The translations under genes were made by a program, and so were the position numbers. Shown here one piece after another: positions 19,427-25,433 of a stretch of 64,000 nucleotides of DNA. The DNA is taken from positions 124,001-188,000 of the forward strand of contig NZ_JAMWMR010000004.1 of the NCBI RefSeq assembly GCF_023887685.1, in the 5' to 3' direction. The DNA is from Streptomyces macrolidinus. GTDB lineage: Bacteria > Actinomycetota > Actinomycetes > Streptomycetales > Streptomycetaceae. The notes under the pieces are model-generated. The model did no database searches. It worked only from the letters and a program-made list of their open reading frames with translations, and was not told the origin of the DNA. The number at the start of each line of letters is the position of its first letter. Within the stretch, counting starts at the first letter, position 1.

Positions 19427-19771
19427 ATGACGACACGCAGAGGCTGGACGGCGGCAGGCCGATGGGCCGCGGCCACGGCGGCGGCGCTGGCGCTGGTCGG
19501 CGCGGCATCGGCGACCGCGACTGCCGACCCGGCACACGAGCACGAGCCCACCTACCGGTGTGTGCTGCTGGAGACCCATGAACTCCCCTTCGCGGTAGGC
19601 CGGTTCTGCGAGGCCCACCACGGGGCGCCGCACGAGGGGCCCATCTTCGGGCACTTCCGCATCGAGAGCCCCCGAGGAGCCGTGCGCTGCGAGGTCTTCC
19701 GCCCGTTCTCCGGCTTCGCACAACTCCCGGAGCGGGTCGAGGGGCGGTTCTGTCACCACATCGTGAGGTGA
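19427..19771 (+). CDS. Small secreted cysteine-containing protein (114 aa)
   Basis: Unknown family. ATG 19427 follows GGAG and starts a Sec signal peptide (RRGWTAAGRW, then an Ala/Leu-rich core ending ATATADPA near residue 35). The ~80-residue mature part has four cysteines (YRCVLL, GRFCEAHH, VRCEVF, GRFCHH) and several histidines, consistent with two disulphides in a small extracellular domain. No partner gene is adjacent. Followed immediately by a degenerate TGACCGG tandem repeat. The 19147-19426 gap upstream shows no gene. Confidence 0.6.
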   Translation: MTTRRGWTAAGRWAAATAAALALVGAASATATADPAHEHEPTYRCVLLETHELPFAVGRFCEAHHGAPHEGPIFGHFRIESPRGAVRCEVFRPFSGFAQLPERVEGRFCHHIVR

Positions 19772-19845
19772 CCGGCCGACGTGACCGGCTGACGGTGACC
19801 GGTTGACCGGTTGACTGGTTGACCGGCCGACGGTGACCGGCTGAT
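19768..19845. repeat. Degenerate tandem repeat of TGACCGG(C/T)(C/T)GAC units
   Basis: About seven head-to-tail copies of a 9-13 bp unit built on TGACCGG fill the space after the small secreted gene. The copies differ at one or two bases. This looks like slippage-generated DNA; no function can be assigned. Confidence 0.6.
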
Positions 19846-20237: not shown

Positions 20238-21566
20238 TCACATGTCAACGGCGAGCACGCGCCGCGCCGCGATCCGGGCCGAGCGGACAGCCGCCTCGCT
20301 GTTGGGCCGCAGCATCACCCAGTCACCGGCGTAGTCCACACGGCGCCGGGGCCGCTCCATGAACTCCGACCGCAGGCGCAGCGCGGCCGGAGTCGCCTCG
20401 GGCAGCCCGTTCGGCCACCGCACCACGAACTCCGTACGCGTCGCCCCGGTCAGACCCGGCAGATACCGCTCGGCGCGTGCGCGGAGCACGGACGCGATCT
20501 CGTCGTCGGATCGCGCCATCAGGTCCGGTGACGCGTACGGCGAGACGAACAGGCTGACCAGTCCCCGGCCGGGCGGGACCCGGTCGGGTGCCTTGAGATG
20601 GTCGAGGATGGCCCCGGCGAGCAGCGGGTCGGCCGCGGCCGGGACGGCCAGGGCGTACGACGGGTGCCGGGTCGGGCTCGGCAGCGGGCGGTCCAGCAGA
20701 CACAGCACCTTCAGCATCGGACTGTAGGTGCTCGCCGCGAGGTAGGGACGCTCGTCGTCCGGCGGATCGGCGTGGAGCGTGAGCGCCACGGGTGCGGGCA
20801 CCGCCAGGACGGCGCATCGCGCGGTCACCGACGCGCCGCCGGTCAGGTCGATGCGTACCGTACGCGGTCCCGGCTTGACCGCGACGGCCGCGGTGCCGGT
20901 GACGACGTCCGACCGGTCCGCCAGCGCCCTGGCCAGCGCGTCCATACCGTCCCGGTAGGCGCACCAGCGGGCCGCCGCACCTCCCACGGCGAGCAGCAGC
21001 GCGGCCATCGGGCCGATCGCCGAACGCTCCGGTCGCCAGCCGAAGAAGCCACCGGCCATCGGCTGCAACAGACAGTCGTACAGGTCGCGATGGTAGTGCC
21101 GGGCGAATTCCGCGACGGTCGCGTGGCCGAGGGGAGTGGCCTCGGGACGGTCCTGGTCGAAGCGGTCGCGGTGCCGCATGAGCGCGCCGGTGAACCGCAG
21201 CCAGTCCAGCCGCCCGCGCCATGACATCCCGGCCCCGGTCAGCAGTCCGGCCGGATGACCGAGGTTGGTGTGGGCGCGGCCGTCGCGCCAGAGCGCGATC
21301 CGGCCGCCGACCGGCATCACGGCGTCGTCGCCCAGGCCGACCGCCCGCACCAGCCGCCAGGTGTCCTCGTAGCCCCGGACCGCCAGGTGCTCCGCGCCCT
21401 CGTCCAGCACATAGCCGTCGTGGCGGCGGGTGACCATCCGCCCGCCCACCTTGTCGAGTGCCTCGAACACCCGCACGGATCGGCCGGCTCGGGCCAGATG
21501 GAAGGCGGTGGCCAGGCCGGAGATCCCGGCTCCCACCACGGCGATGTCGACGTCGGTCTCGGTCAT
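20238..21566 (-). CDS. FAD-dependent amine-oxidase-family oxidoreductase (protoporphyrinogen-oxidase-like)
   Basis: A 442-aa flavoprotein, last gene of a five-gene minus-strand set. The FAD fingerprint is VVGAGISGLATAFHLARAG (GAGISG 12-17) with the acidic VFEALDKVGGRM. Further family features are DEGAEHLAV, a central substrate domain (LLQPMAGGFFGWRPE), a second FAD contact CAVLAVPAPVAL and a C-terminal YAGDWV. Such enzymes desaturate or oxidatively cyclise amines, porphyrinogens, carotenoids or prenylated aromatics. Next to a UbiA prenyltransferase and two cyclase-like folds, oxidation of a prenyl-aromatic intermediate is a reasonable inference, not a demonstrated fact. Confidence 0.85.
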   Translation of the reverse strand: MTETDVDIAVVGAGISGLATAFHLARAGRSVRVFEALDKVGGRMVTRRHDGYVLDEGAEHLAVRGYEDTWRLVRAVGLGDDAVMPVGGRIALWRDGRAHTNLGHPAGLLTGAGMSWRGRLDWLRFTGALMRHRDRFDQDRPEATPLGHATVAEFARHYHRDLYDCLLQPMAGGFFGWRPERSAIGPMAALLLAVGGAAARWCAYRDGMDALARALADRSDVVTGTAAVAVKPGPRTVRIDLTGGASVTARCAVLAVPAPVALTLHADPPDDERPYLAASTYSPMLKVLCLLDRPLPSPTRHPSYALAVPAAADPLLAGAILDHLKAPDRVPPGRGLVSLFVSPYASPDLMARSDDEIASVLRARAERYLPGLTGATRTEFVVRWPNGLPEATPAALRLRSEFMERPRRRVDYAGDWVMLRPNSEAAVRSARIAARRVLAVDM

Positions 21567-21579
21567 GGGTGGTTCGCCC

Positions 21580-21613
21580 CTCGTGAAGGTGTCGCGTGCT
21601 CGTGAAGGTGTCG
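21580..21613. repeat. 15-bp direct repeat in the operon gap
   Basis: CTCGTGAAGGTGTCG occurs at 21580-21594 and again at 21599-21613, between the AMP-ligase and FAD oxidoreductase genes. It makes up much of the 81-bp spacer. Confidence 0.7.
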
Positions 21614-21647
21614 ATACGGATGTGCCAGGGCGTGGACGCGGCCGGGA

Positions 21648-23243
21648 TCAGGTCCAGTGCCCGGTGCCGTACGGTTCCGCCCCGTCGAGCAGCCGGTCCC
21701 GCAGCTCCTGTCTGCGGACCTTGCCGGTCGCGGTGAGCGGAAGCCGACCGTCCGGCACCAGCACCGGCTCGGCGAGCGGCGGGAGATCGGCCATGGCCCG
21801 GCGCCACGCGGCCCGGTCCAGCGTGCCGTCGCGGGTCACCAGGACCGGCAGCGGCCGTCCGCTCGCGCGACCGAGCACCACCGCCTCGACCACCTCCGGC
21901 AGCCGGTCGTGGATCACGTCCTCGATCTCCACACAACTGCCGTCCCGGACCGTGTCCACCTCGCGGTCGAGCAGGAGCAGCCGCCCGGACCGGGTGCGGA
22001 TCCCGAGATCCCCGGTGGCGAACCAGCCGTCGGTGACCTTGGCCCGCAGCCGCTCCGTCTCGCCGATGTACCCGGCGCACAGCGTCCTCGTACGGGCCAG
22101 CACCAGACCGGGCCGACCACGCCCCACCGGCCGCAGCGTCTGCGGATCCACCACGCGCAGACGTGTCTTGCCGGGAACCGGGCGGCCCAGGTCGCGGGTC
22201 GTGGGGTGGCGTCGCCCCACGGCGCGCACCGAGCGCCGGGTGAGGCAGCGGAAGGTGAGCGGCCCGGTCTCGGACTGCCCCCAGACCTGCACCCACAGCG
22301 GCAGACGGCGGCGGGTGGCGCCGAGGAACGCCCGTACGGTCGGCGGGTGAACGGCGTCGAAGGTGTTGACGTAGAGCCGTACGTCGCGGAACGGGTGGTC
22401 CGGTGACGCGGCGAGCGACTGCCAGCGTACGAAGGCCGCGGGCGCCGCCTCCACGACGGTCGGCGGATGGGCGCGCAGGACCGGTTCGGCGCGCCGGGGG
22501 TCGTAGCTGTCCAGGATCACCGCCTCGCGCGGGGCGAGCCAGAGCACACTGACCGTCCAGGTGAGAGCCCGGCCGTGGGCGTACGAGGTGGCCTGGACGA
22601 CGGTGTCGTCACCCCGGGGCGACACGAGGGGCAGGCGCCGTGCCTCGGCTGCGGCGATCCGGTGGATCAGGGTCTCACTCGTGTGGGCGACCAGCTTGGG
22701 GAGCCCGGTGGTGCCCGAGGTGTGCATGACGGCCAACGGCGCGCCGTCCGGGCGGCGTCGGGGCGGTGGCGGGCGGTGTCCGCGTACGTCCTCCAGCGGG
22801 ACGGCGCCACGTGCGGGGCCGTCGAGCGTCAGGGTGCGACGCGTGAACGCGCTCAGATCCGTGCCCGCGGCATCGGCGCTCGCCAGGGTGTCCGCGGTGG
22901 TGACCAGCGCGGGGGCGTCCAGCCGCTTGAGCAGCAGTTGGAGCGTCTCGGCCGGGAGGCGGTCGGAGAGCAGCGCGGGCACGGCGCCGATGCGGGCGGC
23001 GGCGCAGGCGAGCAGGACGTGGTCCCAGTGGTTCGGTTTGACCACGGCGACCCGGTCGCCACGCTCCACGCCCAGCGCGTCGAGCCAGCCCGCGGCCCGC
23101 GCGACGAGTTCGGCAAGGCCTTCGATCCCGTACGTCGTCGGGCCGTTCGGCGCGATGTCCAGGGCCCGGCCCAGCCGGACGAGGGTCGGGGTGCCGCGCT
23201 CGGCGAGAACGTCGAAGAACGGGCCGGGGTCGAGAGGGGGCAT
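21648..23243 (-). CDS. AMP-dependent acyl/aryl-CoA or amide ligase (ANL superfamily)
   Basis: A 531-aa adenylate-forming enzyme that would activate a carboxylic acid as its adenylate and pass it to CoA or an amine. The P-loop is HTSGTTGLPK (residues 175-183), the motif near the active site is WGQSETGPLTF, the hinge region is GWFATGDLGIR and RLLLLDREVDTV, and the C-terminal catalytic Lys is in PLTATGKVRRQ. It contains an A5-like block and ends normally. Position between UbiA and the FAD enzyme suggests it activates an aromatic or prenylated acid in the same pathway. The start ATG 23243 lies after a repeat-rich 93-bp spacer. Confidence 0.87.
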   Translation of the reverse strand: MPPLDPGPFFDVLAERGTPTLVRLGRALDIAPNGPTTYGIEGLAELVARAAGWLDALGVERGDRVAVVKPNHWDHVLLACAAARIGAVPALLSDRLPAETLQLLLKRLDAPALVTTADTLASADAAGTDLSAFTRRTLTLDGPARGAVPLEDVRGHRPPPPRRRPDGAPLAVMHTSGTTGLPKLVAHTSETLIHRIAAAEARRLPLVSPRGDDTVVQATSYAHGRALTWTVSVLWLAPREAVILDSYDPRRAEPVLRAHPPTVVEAAPAAFVRWQSLAASPDHPFRDVRLYVNTFDAVHPPTVRAFLGATRRRLPLWVQVWGQSETGPLTFRCLTRRSVRAVGRRHPTTRDLGRPVPGKTRLRVVDPQTLRPVGRGRPGLVLARTRTLCAGYIGETERLRAKVTDGWFATGDLGIRTRSGRLLLLDREVDTVRDGSCVEIEDVIHDRLPEVVEAVVLGRASGRPLPVLVTRDGTLDRAAWRRAMADLPPLAEPVLVPDGRLPLTATGKVRRQELRDRLLDGAEPYGTGHWT

Positions 23244-23254
23244 CGTGTCGCTGC

Positions 23255-23340
23255 CTTCTGGATCAGGCTTCTGGATCAGGCTTGCGGGTCGGGCTTCCGG
23301 GGGGATCGGGCTTCCGGGGGGGATCGGGCTTCTGGATCAG
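23255..23340. repeat. Tandem/interspersed repeat in the ligase-UbiA gap
   Basis: TTCTGGATCAGGC is repeated in tandem at the ligase end and again at the UbiA end. Between them are two copies of a GATCGGGCTTCCGGGGG-type unit. The whole 93-bp spacer is repeat, so it may have grown by slippage. Confidence 0.7.
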
Positions 23341-24341
23341 GCGGTGCGGGCGCTCAGCAGATTCGCCGTCACCAGCGCGGCGACCAGGAGCCGGTGGGCG
23401 TGGATACCGATCAACCGGCCCCGCAGGACATCGCCGCGCACCATGCCGATCGTGAACTGCCCGACGCGGGCCGCCGTCACCGGCAGCAGGACCAGTGGGA
23501 ACCACCACGGCACGACCCCCAGGAGCGCCGCCGCGACGACCACCGCGGTCTCCAGTACGGAGAGCGCGCCGATGAACGCGGTGTTGCCGCGCGGCGACAG
23601 CAGACACGCGACGGTGGGCCGGCCCACGGCCCGGTCACCGGAGATGTCGTTCGTGTTCGAGTACACGCCGAACAGAAGCGGCCCCAGACCGAAGAGGAAC
23701 GCCTCCACGACGGCCGGACCGGTGGCCTTCCCGGTGAGCAGGCCGTGGAGCGGCAGCACGAAGGCCCAGCCGACGGCCGCGAGGAACACCTCCTGCACAC
23801 CCCGGTGGCCCAGCCGCAGGCCCCACGAGTACTGCGGGACCACGAGCCCGGCGCTCACCACACCGAGCACCGCCCACAGCGGCCGGTGGGGCGCGACCAC
23901 CAGCGCGACCGCCCAGCACAGACCGCCGCCGACGAGCGCTCCCCAGGCGAAGCGCAGCGCGTCCGCCTCGGTCAGCGTGCCGGCCAGCAGGGGCTTGCGG
24001 GCGAGTCTGCGGACCGGCGCGTCCGCCCCGTAGTTGACGGCGTCGCTTCCGTCCCGGTAACCGGCGACGTCGTCGAACGCGACCGCCGCGCCGACCAGGC
24101 ACACCTCGCCGAGGAGGAACGCGAGCAGCGTCACCCCTGTCGACAGGCCCTCGCCCGGCCGTTCCCGCAAGAGAAGGAGCGACCCGACGACGAACAGGCT
24201 GAGGTAGTAGTCGACCATGCCGAGCTTGGCCAGCCGGACATAGGCGGCCAGCCGGACCCAGGCGGGCAGCCGCGCCCATGGGTGTCCGCCGGGGCGGCCC
24301 GAAGTCGCGGCGGTGGCGGCCGGGTTGAGCTCAGCGGCCAT
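23337..24341 (-). CDS. UbiA-family prenyltransferase
   Basis: A 334-aa integral membrane prenyltransferase with eight or nine helices that moves a prenyl group from a diphosphate to an acceptor, usually aromatic. Both Asp-rich motifs are present: FDDVAGYRDGSD (residues 89-100) and NDISGDRAVG (231-240), which bind the Mg-diphosphate. The second resembles MenA-type NDxxDxxGD sequences, but the first (AFDD) departs from NDxxD. Acceptor and chain length are unknown. It sits between the AOC-barrel and ligase genes of the minus-strand set. No prenyl-diphosphate synthase or chorismate lyase gene is in the window, so precursors must come from elsewhere. Confidence 0.88.
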   Translation of the reverse strand: MAAELNPAATAATSGRPGGHPWARLPAWVRLAAYVRLAKLGMVDYYLSLFVVGSLLLLRERPGEGLSTGVTLLAFLLGEVCLVGAAVAFDDVAGYRDGSDAVNYGADAPVRRLARKPLLAGTLTEADALRFAWGALVGGGLCWAVALVVAPHRPLWAVLGVVSAGLVVPQYSWGLRLGHRGVQEVFLAAVGWAFVLPLHGLLTGKATGPAVVEAFLFGLGPLLFGVYSNTNDISGDRAVGRPTVACLLSPRGNTAFIGALSVLETAVVVAAALLGVVPWWFPLVLLPVTAARVGQFTIGMVRGDVLRGRLIGIHAHRLLVAALVTANLLSARTA

Positions 24342-24425
24342 GAACGCTCCCTGCTGTCGTGCCCAGTTGTTCGAGAAGAGGGAGCCGCCGAATGTCTCGG
24401 CGGCTCCCCTTGCCTGCTCGGGCCC

Positions 24426-24914
24426 TTACTTGAAGTTGACGACGACCTCGTAGACACGGGGCCGGTGGGCGATGATCGTCGCCTGGCCCTGCGCGCCGTC
24501 GTACATCCCGGTGCCGCCCTGCACCACGCCCTGGAACGTGTACGGGTAGTCGCGCGGGTTCACGTCGATCGGGGCCTGGGTGCTCAGGTCCAGCTCGCTG
24601 CCGTTGGCGAACTTGACGTACACCGTGCAGATGACGTCCGCCGTCGTGGCGTTCTCGACGCCGTCCACGGCGCAGGTGTCGTAGGCCGTGCCGATCTGGT
24701 TGCCGTCGGAGTCGATCACCGGGCCGTTCCCGGCGAAGCCCGCGCCCAGCGTCGGAACCTGCGGGAACGAGGTCTTCGAGAAGTCGACGGTGAAGTTCAG
24801 GGGGTCGGGACTTGCCGCGTGGGCCTGCACCGAGCCGGTCAGGCCGAGGGCACCGGCGAGGGACGCGGTGGCGAGGGCGGCGGCGATCCGCCTGCCCACA
24901 GCGAGTTTGCGCAT
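24426..24914 (-). CDS. Secreted allene-oxide-cyclase-like barrel (AOC/dirigent fold) protein
   Basis: A 162-aa exported protein. ATG 24914 with AGGAGA starts a signal peptide (RKLAVGRRIAAAL, then an Ala/Leu core ending HAASPDP near residue 35). The mature domain shows the AOC/dirigent pattern: DSDGNQIGTAYDTC, a run of alternating strands (VICTVYVKF) and the loop GGTGMYDGAQGQATI. Plant and bacterial relatives guide cyclisation or coupling of reactive intermediates without a cofactor. Its place between SnoaL-like and UbiA genes makes a cyclase or dirigent role plausible, although secretion of a pathway enzyme would be unusual. Confidence 0.75.
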   Translation of the reverse strand: MRKLAVGRRIAAALATASLAGALGLTGSVQAHAASPDPLNFTVDFSKTSFPQVPTLGAGFAGNGPVIDSDGNQIGTAYDTCAVDGVENATTADVICTVYVKFANGSELDLSTQAPIDVNPRDYPYTFQGVVQGGTGMYDGAQGQATIIAHRPRVYEVVVNFK

Positions 24915-24989
24915 GAAGTCTCCTTGGACATCTCGGGCCCGTTGCCCGACGACCGACACAGTGGACCACAACGGGCAACCGTGAAACTA

Positions 24990-25433
24990 CTAAGCGTGAT
25001 CGTGGCGCGTCACGTGTCCGTGGTCCGGCACCGCGCCGATCTGACGCAGGACCGAGAGCGAGTCGAAGTACTCCCGCTCGCGGTAGATGAGCCGGTCGCG
25101 GACCTCGATGACATGGCAGGCGTGCGACATGACCGTCTCGCCGGTCGGCTGGATGTCCCCGAGCGGGCCGAGGTGGGTGCCGCGGCACACCACCTCCACG
25201 AAGGAGACGGCGTCGGACTCGCCGGAGTGGAAGGCCCGGTAGGAGAACCGCAGATCCGGGAACGCGGTGTGCACACGGCGCATCATGGCGACCGGGGTGT
25301 CGGTCTCCGAGAACTGGCGCCCGGTGTTGTCGGTGTAGACGTACTCCGGGTGGTACAGCGCTCTCATCCCCTCCCAGTCGTGGTTCTCCACGGCCTCCCA
25401 CTGCCGCCGGTGGATCTCGGTCGCCAGCATCAT
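24990..25433 (-). CDS. SnoaL-like / ester-cyclase-family protein (NTF2-like fold)
   Basis: A 147-aa NTF2-like protein: helix-rich start RQWEAVENHDWEGMRALYHPEYVYTD, then VHTAFPDLRFSYRAF, FVEVVCRGTHLGPLGD and a closing HVIEVRDRLIYREREYFD. SnoaL relatives catalyse intramolecular aldol or pyran cyclisation, while others are simple ligand-binding proteins. ATG 25433 follows GGGAG; ATG 25430 is equally possible. First gene of the five-gene set, reading away from the lytic transglycosylase gene, with a palindromic element 35 bp upstream. Confidence 0.8.
   Translation of the reverse strand: MMLATEIHRRQWEAVENHDWEGMRALYHPEYVYTDNTGRQFSETDTPVAMMRRVHTAFPDLRFSYRAFHSGESDAVSFVEVVCRGTHLGPLGDIQPTGETVMSHACHVIEVRDRLIYREREYFDSLSVLRQIGAVPDHGHVTRHDHA

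What the first reader, a model, noticed from the sequence alone, without database searches (positions are those of the whole stretch)
20238..25433. Compact five-gene prenylation/cyclisation cluster of unknown product
SnoaL-like, AOC-barrel, UbiA prenyltransferase, AMP-ligase and FAD oxidoreductase genes follow one another on the minus strand with 75-93 bp spacers. The enzyme set parallels the logic of xiamenmycin-type benzopyran meroterpenoids (UbiA prenyltransferase, ligase, flavin oxygenase, SnoaL-like cyclase). It differs in having a secreted AOC/dirigent-type barrel, an amine-oxidase-type flavoenzyme and no chorismate lyase. UbiA has an unusual first Asp motif (FDDVAGYRDGSD). I know of no described pathway with exactly these five genes.
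Basis: partly seen in the sequence, partly recalled or inferred. Interest (0 to 1): 0.75.

Follow-up and report, generated by a model that had tools for sequence, protein, structure and literature searches.

The report
Pared-down prenylation cassette from larger pathway
These five neighbouring Streptomyces genes match, in the same order, the two ends and middle of a 19-gene cluster seen in a related species; they are likely what two deletions left of such a cluster, and would get their missing partners from a second copy of the pathway elsewhere in the genome.

Summary
The five genes are real, but a self-contained xiamenmycin-like pathway is not supported. In S. dysideae one contig carries 19 genes from SnoaL through DUF6917, Gfo/Idh, DegT x2, AOC, CaiB and others to UbiA, ligase and FAD oxidase. 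The window keeps SnoaL, AOC, UbiA, ligase and FAD in that order and orientation, with sharp junctions at 24982-25033 and 24363-24373. A second, AOC-less cluster on contig 35 of the own genome has nearly every missing gene. All five genomes with a compact AOC-UbiA locus carry DUF6917 and CaiB elsewhere; the four with a full AOC-type cluster have one UbiA and one DUF6917. In S. hygroscopicus the other cluster lost UbiA, FAD and most of the ligase (remnant), so the compact locus holds its only UbiA of this family. The tree implies two independent reductions. Against strict dependence: in S. misionensis the other cluster looks broken, and the window strain's other cluster has its own triad. Product and chemistry are inferred; the papers searched describe neither.

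The parts
24990..25433 (-). SnoaL-like protein, 147 aa; leftmost gene of the matching S. dysideae cluster
   Evidence: PF07366 67.9 bits; 78% relative at the left end of the S. dysideae contig; dN/dS 0.29 between the two
24982..25033 (-). inferred junction of deletion 1; S. dysideae has about 9.7 kb here (AhpD-like by eye, DUF6917, Gfo/Idh, Ldh2, M20, TIM barrel, Gfo/Idh, DegT x2)
   Evidence: SnoaL-side homology stops at 25033, AOC-side homology starts at 24982 (S. colonosanans) or 24970 (S. dysideae)
24426..24914 (-). secreted AOC/dirigent-type beta-barrel protein, 162 aa; cysteines 81 and 96 invariant in 16 of 16 aligned sequences, a possible disulfide; signal peptide judged by eye
24379..24409 (-). 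13-bp-stem terminator-like hairpin after the AOC stop codon
   Evidence: MFE z -2.64 for the gap; stem readable in 7 of 8 aligned loci, the eighth was cut by my coordinates; covariation not above shuffles
24363..24373 (-). inferred junction of deletion 2; S. dysideae has about 6.15 kb here (small secreted protein, methyltransferase, CaiB, AMP ligase, FAD monooxygenase)
   Evidence: AOC-side homology to S. colonosanans ends at 24373, UbiA-side homology starts at 24363
23337..24341 (-). UbiA-family membrane prenyltransferase of a distinct DDxxGxxDGSD subfamily
21648..23243 (-). acyl/aryl adenylate-forming ligase, 531 aa
   Evidence: PF00501 168.6 bits; nearest solved sequences are fatty-acid, 4-chlorobenzoate and aryl-acid ligases
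20238..21566 (-). FAD oxidoreductase of the amine-oxidase / HpnE / protoporphyrinogen-oxidase group
   Evidence: PF01593 153.8 bits; best NCBIfam hit HpnE 84.7 bits, far under its cut-off of 283

Best explanation
The five genes appear to be what two internal deletions left of a cluster of about nineteen genes, and they likely work as a prenylation cassette that borrows its missing precursor genes from a second copy of the pathway (contig 35) in the same genome. Shown: gene content, shared order and orientation, junctions, and the second cluster. Inferred from the tree: that the full cluster is the older state and was reduced at least twice. Inferred from families: UbiA would move an isoprenyl group from its diphosphate onto an acceptor; the 531-aa ligase would adenylate a carboxylic acid for thioester or amide formation; the amine-oxidase-type flavoenzyme would oxidise or desaturate the prenylated intermediate; the exported AOC barrel would cyclise or bind the product outside the cell; SnoaL would be an accessory cyclase or a passenger. 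The contig-35 cluster would supply the acceptor through a nucleotide-sugar dehydrogenase, two Gfo/Idh dehydrogenases, two DegT aminotransferases, a TIM-barrel protein, a methyltransferase, CaiB and a second AMP ligase. Because contig 35 also has its own UbiA-FAD-ligase triad, the window cassette would be an alternative tail-end module that could give a second congener.
For: Order and orientation match the S. dysideae cluster from SnoaL through FAD; sharp junctions. All 5 genomes with a compact AOC-UbiA locus carry DUF6917 and CaiB elsewhere, against DUF6917 in 34 of 295 Streptomyces genomes. The 4 genomes with a full AOC-type cluster have one UbiA and one DUF6917 each, on one contig except S. 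colonosanans, which is split by contig ends. S. hygroscopicus lost the triad of its other cluster (ligase remnant, 332 bp, 88.6% to the S. malaysiense ligase, readable only in three pieces) and keeps its only UbiA of this family in the compact locus. UbiA and DUF6917 co-occur in 27 of 28 UbiA-bearing genomes versus 7 of 267 others (p 1e-30). At the thresholds used, they lie on different contigs or 0.18-0.86 Mb apart in 4 of the 27 (G003, G012, G047, G184; G003 carries the same record as the S. hygroscopicus locus). Two reductions: the window groups with full clusters of S. colonosanans and S. dysideae, the other four compact loci with full S. antnestii, each group at support 100. Window genes are under constraint: dN/dS 0.29-0.35 against S. 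colonosanans for UbiA, ligase, FAD and AOC. Isoprenoid context: polyprenyl synthase and DXS beside distant relatives, and DUF6917 fused to DXS.
Against: No expression, metabolite or genetic data. S. misionensis keeps a compact locus although its other cluster looks broken: the ligase keeps residues 169-518 only, behind a thiolase-like start, and M20, TIM, one Gfo/Idh, DegT x2, UbiA and FAD are absent from the two stretches read (draft with runs of N, so assembly error is possible). Dependence is therefore not strict. The five compact genomes represent only about two independent events, so 5 of 5 overstates the statistics, and the UbiA-DUF6917 association mostly reflects shared clusters. The own contig-35 cluster has its own triad, so the window cassette may be redundant; its ligase changes faster than that of S. 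colonosanans (40 v 20 and 36 v 20 unique changes, p 0.013 and 0.044); UbiA and FAD lean the same way without significance. Linkage in S. colonosanans is inferred across contig ends. S. malaysiense lacks the ligase in its compact locus and no FAD monooxygenase was found in S. antnestii. The node joining the two groups is weak (40).
Confidence: 0.6

Rival explanations
1. The five genes are a complete small pathway of their own (xiamenmycin-like logic): UbiA prenylates a housekeeping aromatic acid, the flavoenzyme and SnoaL/AOC close a ring, the ligase adds an amine.
For: All five ORFs intact and under constraint; S. misionensis keeps a compact locus with an apparently broken partner cluster; four of five compact loci keep AOC, UbiA, ligase and FAD after independent reductions.
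Against: The set matches a longer cluster with two gaps; SnoaL was not found beside the other compact loci; no epoxidase-type FAD enzyme or chorismate lyase among the ten window proteins scanned; partner genes present in trans in all five genomes.
Confidence: 0.2
2. The locus is a decaying relic of a duplicated cluster: the contig-35 cluster makes the product and the window genes are redundant leftovers on their way out.
For: Contig 35 carries its own triad; the ligase shows faster change in the window lineage; decay is visible elsewhere: a small-secreted-protein remnant in S. hygroscopicus, and UbiA plus ligase only in L009, whose genome gave no DUF6917, CaiB or AOC hit.
Against: All five window ORFs are intact with dN/dS about 0.3; independent reductions kept nearly the same genes; in S. 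hygroscopicus the compact locus has the only UbiA of this family left.
Confidence: 0.2

Closest known systems
xiamenmycin cluster (ximA-E, S. xiamenensis 318; PMC4053376, passages seen)
   Same: UbiA-family prenyltransferase, AMP-binding ligase, FAD enzyme and SnoaL-like protein in a five-gene set
   Different: XimD is described as a LasC-like epoxidase, XimC as a chorismate lyase, and five genes suffice in S. lividans; here the FAD enzyme is amine-oxidase type, no chorismate lyase was seen, a secreted AOC barrel is present, and the set matches part of a much longer cluster
UBIAD1 / MenA-type and archaeal UbiA prenyltransferases (PDB 8djk, 7bpu, 4od5)
   Different: first motif DDxxGxxDGSD; NCBIfam DHNA prenyltransferase cut-off missed (23.2 of 277 bits)
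AOC-barrel cyclases and related proteins (AbyU, PyrI4, PodA, plant allene oxide cyclase and dirigent proteins)
   Different: roughly 10-20% identity, signal-peptide-like N-terminus (by eye), two conserved cysteines; 15 relatives at E <= 1e-3 in the protein search, and in 150 Streptomyces genomes 10 with a match, of which only the own genome and one at 61% are close; catalytic residues not compared
pathways split over two gene clusters, such as the pyrrolamides of S. netropsis (recalled; my search, did not retrieve that paper)
   Same: genes for one pathway supplied from two loci
   Different: here inferred from genomes only, and the small locus looks like a reduced copy of the large one

Membership tests
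UbiA superfamily | Pfam UbiA above cut-off and UbiA fold | tested here: met
UbiA superfamily | two Asp-rich motifs | tested here: met
   second motif (NTNDISGDR in the window) with both Asp invariant in 64 sequences; first present as DDxxGxxDGSD instead of the usual NDxxD form, which is recalled
MenA (DHNA polyprenyltransferase) equivalog | NCBIfam curated cut-off | tested here: not met
   23.2 of 277 bits
hydroxysqualene dehydroxylase HpnE | NCBIfam curated cut-off | tested here: not met
   84.7 of 283 bits
AOC/dirigent barrel superfamily | eight-stranded AOC-type barrel | tested here: met
xiamenmycin-type clusters | LasC-like FAD epoxidase | tested here: not met
   window FAD protein is Amino_oxidase PF01593 with HpnE as best NCBIfam hit; XimD description
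xiamenmycin-type clusters | chorismate lyase in the cluster | tested here: not met
   none among the ten window proteins scanned; the rest of the genome was not searched
xiamenmycin-type clusters | gene-by-gene homology to XimA-E | not tested
   Xim sequences were not fetched

The most novel reading that the evidence does not exclude
An undescribed family of actinobacterial isoprenoid natural products joins a sugar-like amino building block (nucleotide-sugar dehydrogenase, Gfo/Idh, twin DegT) to a UbiA-transferred prenyl chain, with DUF6917 as a partner of DXS; in this family the tail-end cassette (AOC-UbiA-ligase-FAD) has been cut loose at least twice and now swaps in trans against the resident cassette of a sister cluster to diversify the product.
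Probability: 0.4. Interest if true: 0.75.

Novelty: new variant of a known kind. Interest (0 to 1): 0.58.

Why it matters
It replaces a guess about a five-gene pathway with a testable two-locus model: genome miners who annotate such compact sets as complete clusters would look for the wrong product. The series full cluster - compact locus - remnant, with S. hygroscopicus left with one split pathway, offers a natural test of whether biosynthetic cassettes can be exchanged in trans. The UbiA subfamily occurs in several actinomycete genera (record titles) and in 28 of 295 Streptomyces genomes sampled, and my paper searches turned up no product for its cluster.

Tried and rejected
Stand-alone xiamenmycin-like pathway: rejected as first choice for the reasons in the membership test. 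A unique UbiA motif: rejected, the motif marks a whole subfamily. A single five-gene operon: not favoured, because the AOC-hairpin unit also occurs with a different gene downstream (L004, L006, L008). Covariation of that hairpin: tested, not above shuffles; the consensus terminator scan did not list it and found only one chance-level site, inside UbiA, so 'terminator' is inferred. Solved-structure search with UbiA by sequence: no hit at E <= 1. Literature: searches returned no paper; others (5 of 2,156 papers listed) listed nothing on this gene set; led to PMC4053376 (passages only). A decay test by relative rates gave a mixed result. An earlier idea that CaiB is truncated in S. misionensis was an artefact of my gene caller at a run of N and was withdrawn. 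VIA rows: families not listed there are not excluded.

Dropped before counting: L001, L002 and L100 (duplicates of window, L051 and L017), 26 of the 66 loci were used. Gene calls in relatives come from my own GC-periodicity script, so starts and some short genes are approximate; it lost the FAD gene of L016 that tblastn shows. Host names of L132, L133, L174, L175, L176, L177, L178 and L182 rest on the tool's statement of which genome each named locus lies in.

Full report

RELATED LOCI. A scan of one genome per species gave 48 loci with this UbiA subfamily, and 17 further stretches were taken from Streptomyces genomes. Together with the window and the second cluster of its own genome (L051), after dropping duplicates, UbiA has both the ligase and the FAD gene within 6 kb in 52 of 66 loci. 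Of the other 14, five have only the ligase, three only the FAD gene (one of these with AOC), and six neither; some are cut by contig ends. AOC lies within 10 kb in 8 of 66, the window included. Many loci carry a larger set: DegT x2, methyltransferase, CaiB-type CoA transferase, a second AMP ligase, DUF6917, two Gfo/Idh proteins, Ldh2, an M20 hydrolase, a TIM-barrel protein, a nucleotide-sugar dehydrogenase and an EF-hand protein.

THE WINDOW LOCUS AS A REDUCED CLUSTER. In S. dysideae, SnoaL (78%) sits at the left end of one contig, followed by an AhpD-like gene (by eye), the DUF6917-Gfo-Ldh2-M20-TIM-Gfo operon, DegT x2, AOC, small secreted protein, methyltransferase, CaiB, AMP ligase, FAD monooxygenase, UbiA, ligase and FAD oxidase. 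The closest relative whose surroundings I could read, S. colonosanans (AOC 91%, UbiA 83%), has the same genes from Ldh2 to the AMP ligase, plus a nucleotide-sugar dehydrogenase, on one contig end and UbiA-ligase-FAD at the start of another; its DUF6917 lies on the first of these contigs. Aligned to these, the window jumps from SnoaL to the AOC leader at 25033-24982 and from the AOC hairpin to 22 bp before UbiA at 24373-24363. About 9.7 and 6.15 kb of S. dysideae sequence have no counterpart there. The five genes are therefore most simply the retained parts of a longer array.

PARTNERS IN TRANS. The own genome has a second cluster on contig 35 that carries the missing genes, except that I saw no AhpD-like gene and no FAD monooxygenase there, plus its own UbiA-FAD-ligase triad; AOC has no second copy in the genome. 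The four other genomes with a compact AOC-UbiA locus (S. malaysiense, S. griseofuscus, S. misionensis, S. hygroscopicus) also have one DUF6917 and a CaiB on another contig or about 0.4 Mb away. The four genomes with full AOC-type clusters (G295, G296, G298, G239) have one UbiA and one DUF6917 each. In S. hygroscopicus the other cluster runs from DegT x2 into methyltransferase-CaiB-AMP ligase; the 404-bp gap holds a ligase remnant (332 bp at 88.6%, in three broken pieces), and the only UbiA found in that genome lies in the compact locus. In 295 Streptomyces genomes UbiA (28, E <= 1e-40) and DUF6917 (34) share 27. S. misionensis is the exception: in its other cluster the ligase has lost its first third and seven genes are missing from the two stretches read, while CaiB, the methyltransferase and the AMP ligase are there; the draft has runs of N. 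L009's genome has UbiA and ligase but no FAD gene nearby, and gave no DUF6917, CaiB or AOC hit. In the Streptacidiphilus genome two UbiA copies lie 14 kb apart and DUF6917 on another contig.

TREE AND SELECTION. On UbiA+ligase+FAD (26 loci, 1307 columns) the window pairs with S. colonosanans and then S. dysideae, and the other four compact loci nest beside full S. antnestii; both groups have support 100, while the node joining them has 40. Two independent reductions are the simplest reading. Intermediate states exist: S. misionensis keeps the small secreted gene, S. hygroscopicus only a remnant of it (71% over 426 bp), and S. griseofuscus gave no match in the gap. dN/dS against S. colonosanans is 0.29-0.35 for the triad and AOC; among more distant pairs AOC rises to 0.67-1.10. 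Faster change in the window is significant for the ligase only.

MECHANISM. Shown: content, order, junctions, co-occurrence, remnant. Inferred: prenyl transfer by UbiA, acid activation by the ligase, oxidation by the HpnE-like flavoenzyme, an extracellular role for the AOC barrel. A polyprenyl synthase (L104) and DXS (L110) lie beside distant relatives, and on a Streptomyces plasmid DUF6917 is fused to DXS in one 775-aa protein; both point to isoprenoid metabolism. The acceptor is unknown; the dehydrogenase/aminotransferase set suggests an amino sugar or cyclitol, which is speculation. BenE, a benzoate-transporter family protein, near one relative (L104) would fit an aromatic acid instead.

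TRANSCRIPTION. The AOC-UbiA gap folds better than shuffles (z -2.64, 1 of 200 as good) and the stem is readable in 7 of 8 aligned loci, three of which have the small secreted gene rather than UbiA next (L004, L006, L008); covariation gives no extra support. The sequence before SnoaL is similar in S. dysideae (by eye), a possible promoter.

VERDICT. A real set, wrongly read as a self-contained pathway; most likely a reduced, possibly still cooperating cassette of a larger isoprenoid-type cluster family for which my searches found no description.

Noticed in passing
L189:17031-19358 (NZ_CP107870.1, Streptomyces sp. NBC_00490 plasmid): DUF6917 (residues 7-131) is fused to a complete DXS (148-753) in one 775-aa protein; in L110 the two are neighbouring genes. 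This suggests that DUF6917 works with DXS.
   Followed up: partly
L005:802-8438, L007:1130-9170, L017:493-8270: Beside three compact AOC loci lies a conserved set of two LanB-like proteins, an adenylation enzyme, a PLP enzyme and a carrier protein (all named by eye, untested).
   Followed up: no
window 24426-24914 and relatives: AOC evolves far faster than the triad beside it: pairwise dN/dS 0.67-1.10 among the more distant relatives against 0.25-0.42 for the triad.
   Followed up: partly
window 23255-23332 and 19767-19844: Short tandem repeats in the UbiA-ligase gap (13- and 18-bp units) and downstream of the FAD gene.
   Followed up: no
L176:11881-13167 (S. misionensis): An ORF joins a thiolase-like start (by eye) to residues 169-518 of the type-A ligase, so this cluster seems to have broken in the same gene as in S. 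hygroscopicus.
   Followed up: partly
L179 (G000:C73:1-19900): A further CaiB-like and AMP-ligase pair (48-49% identity to cluster members) lies in the own genome without UbiA nearby.
   Followed up: no
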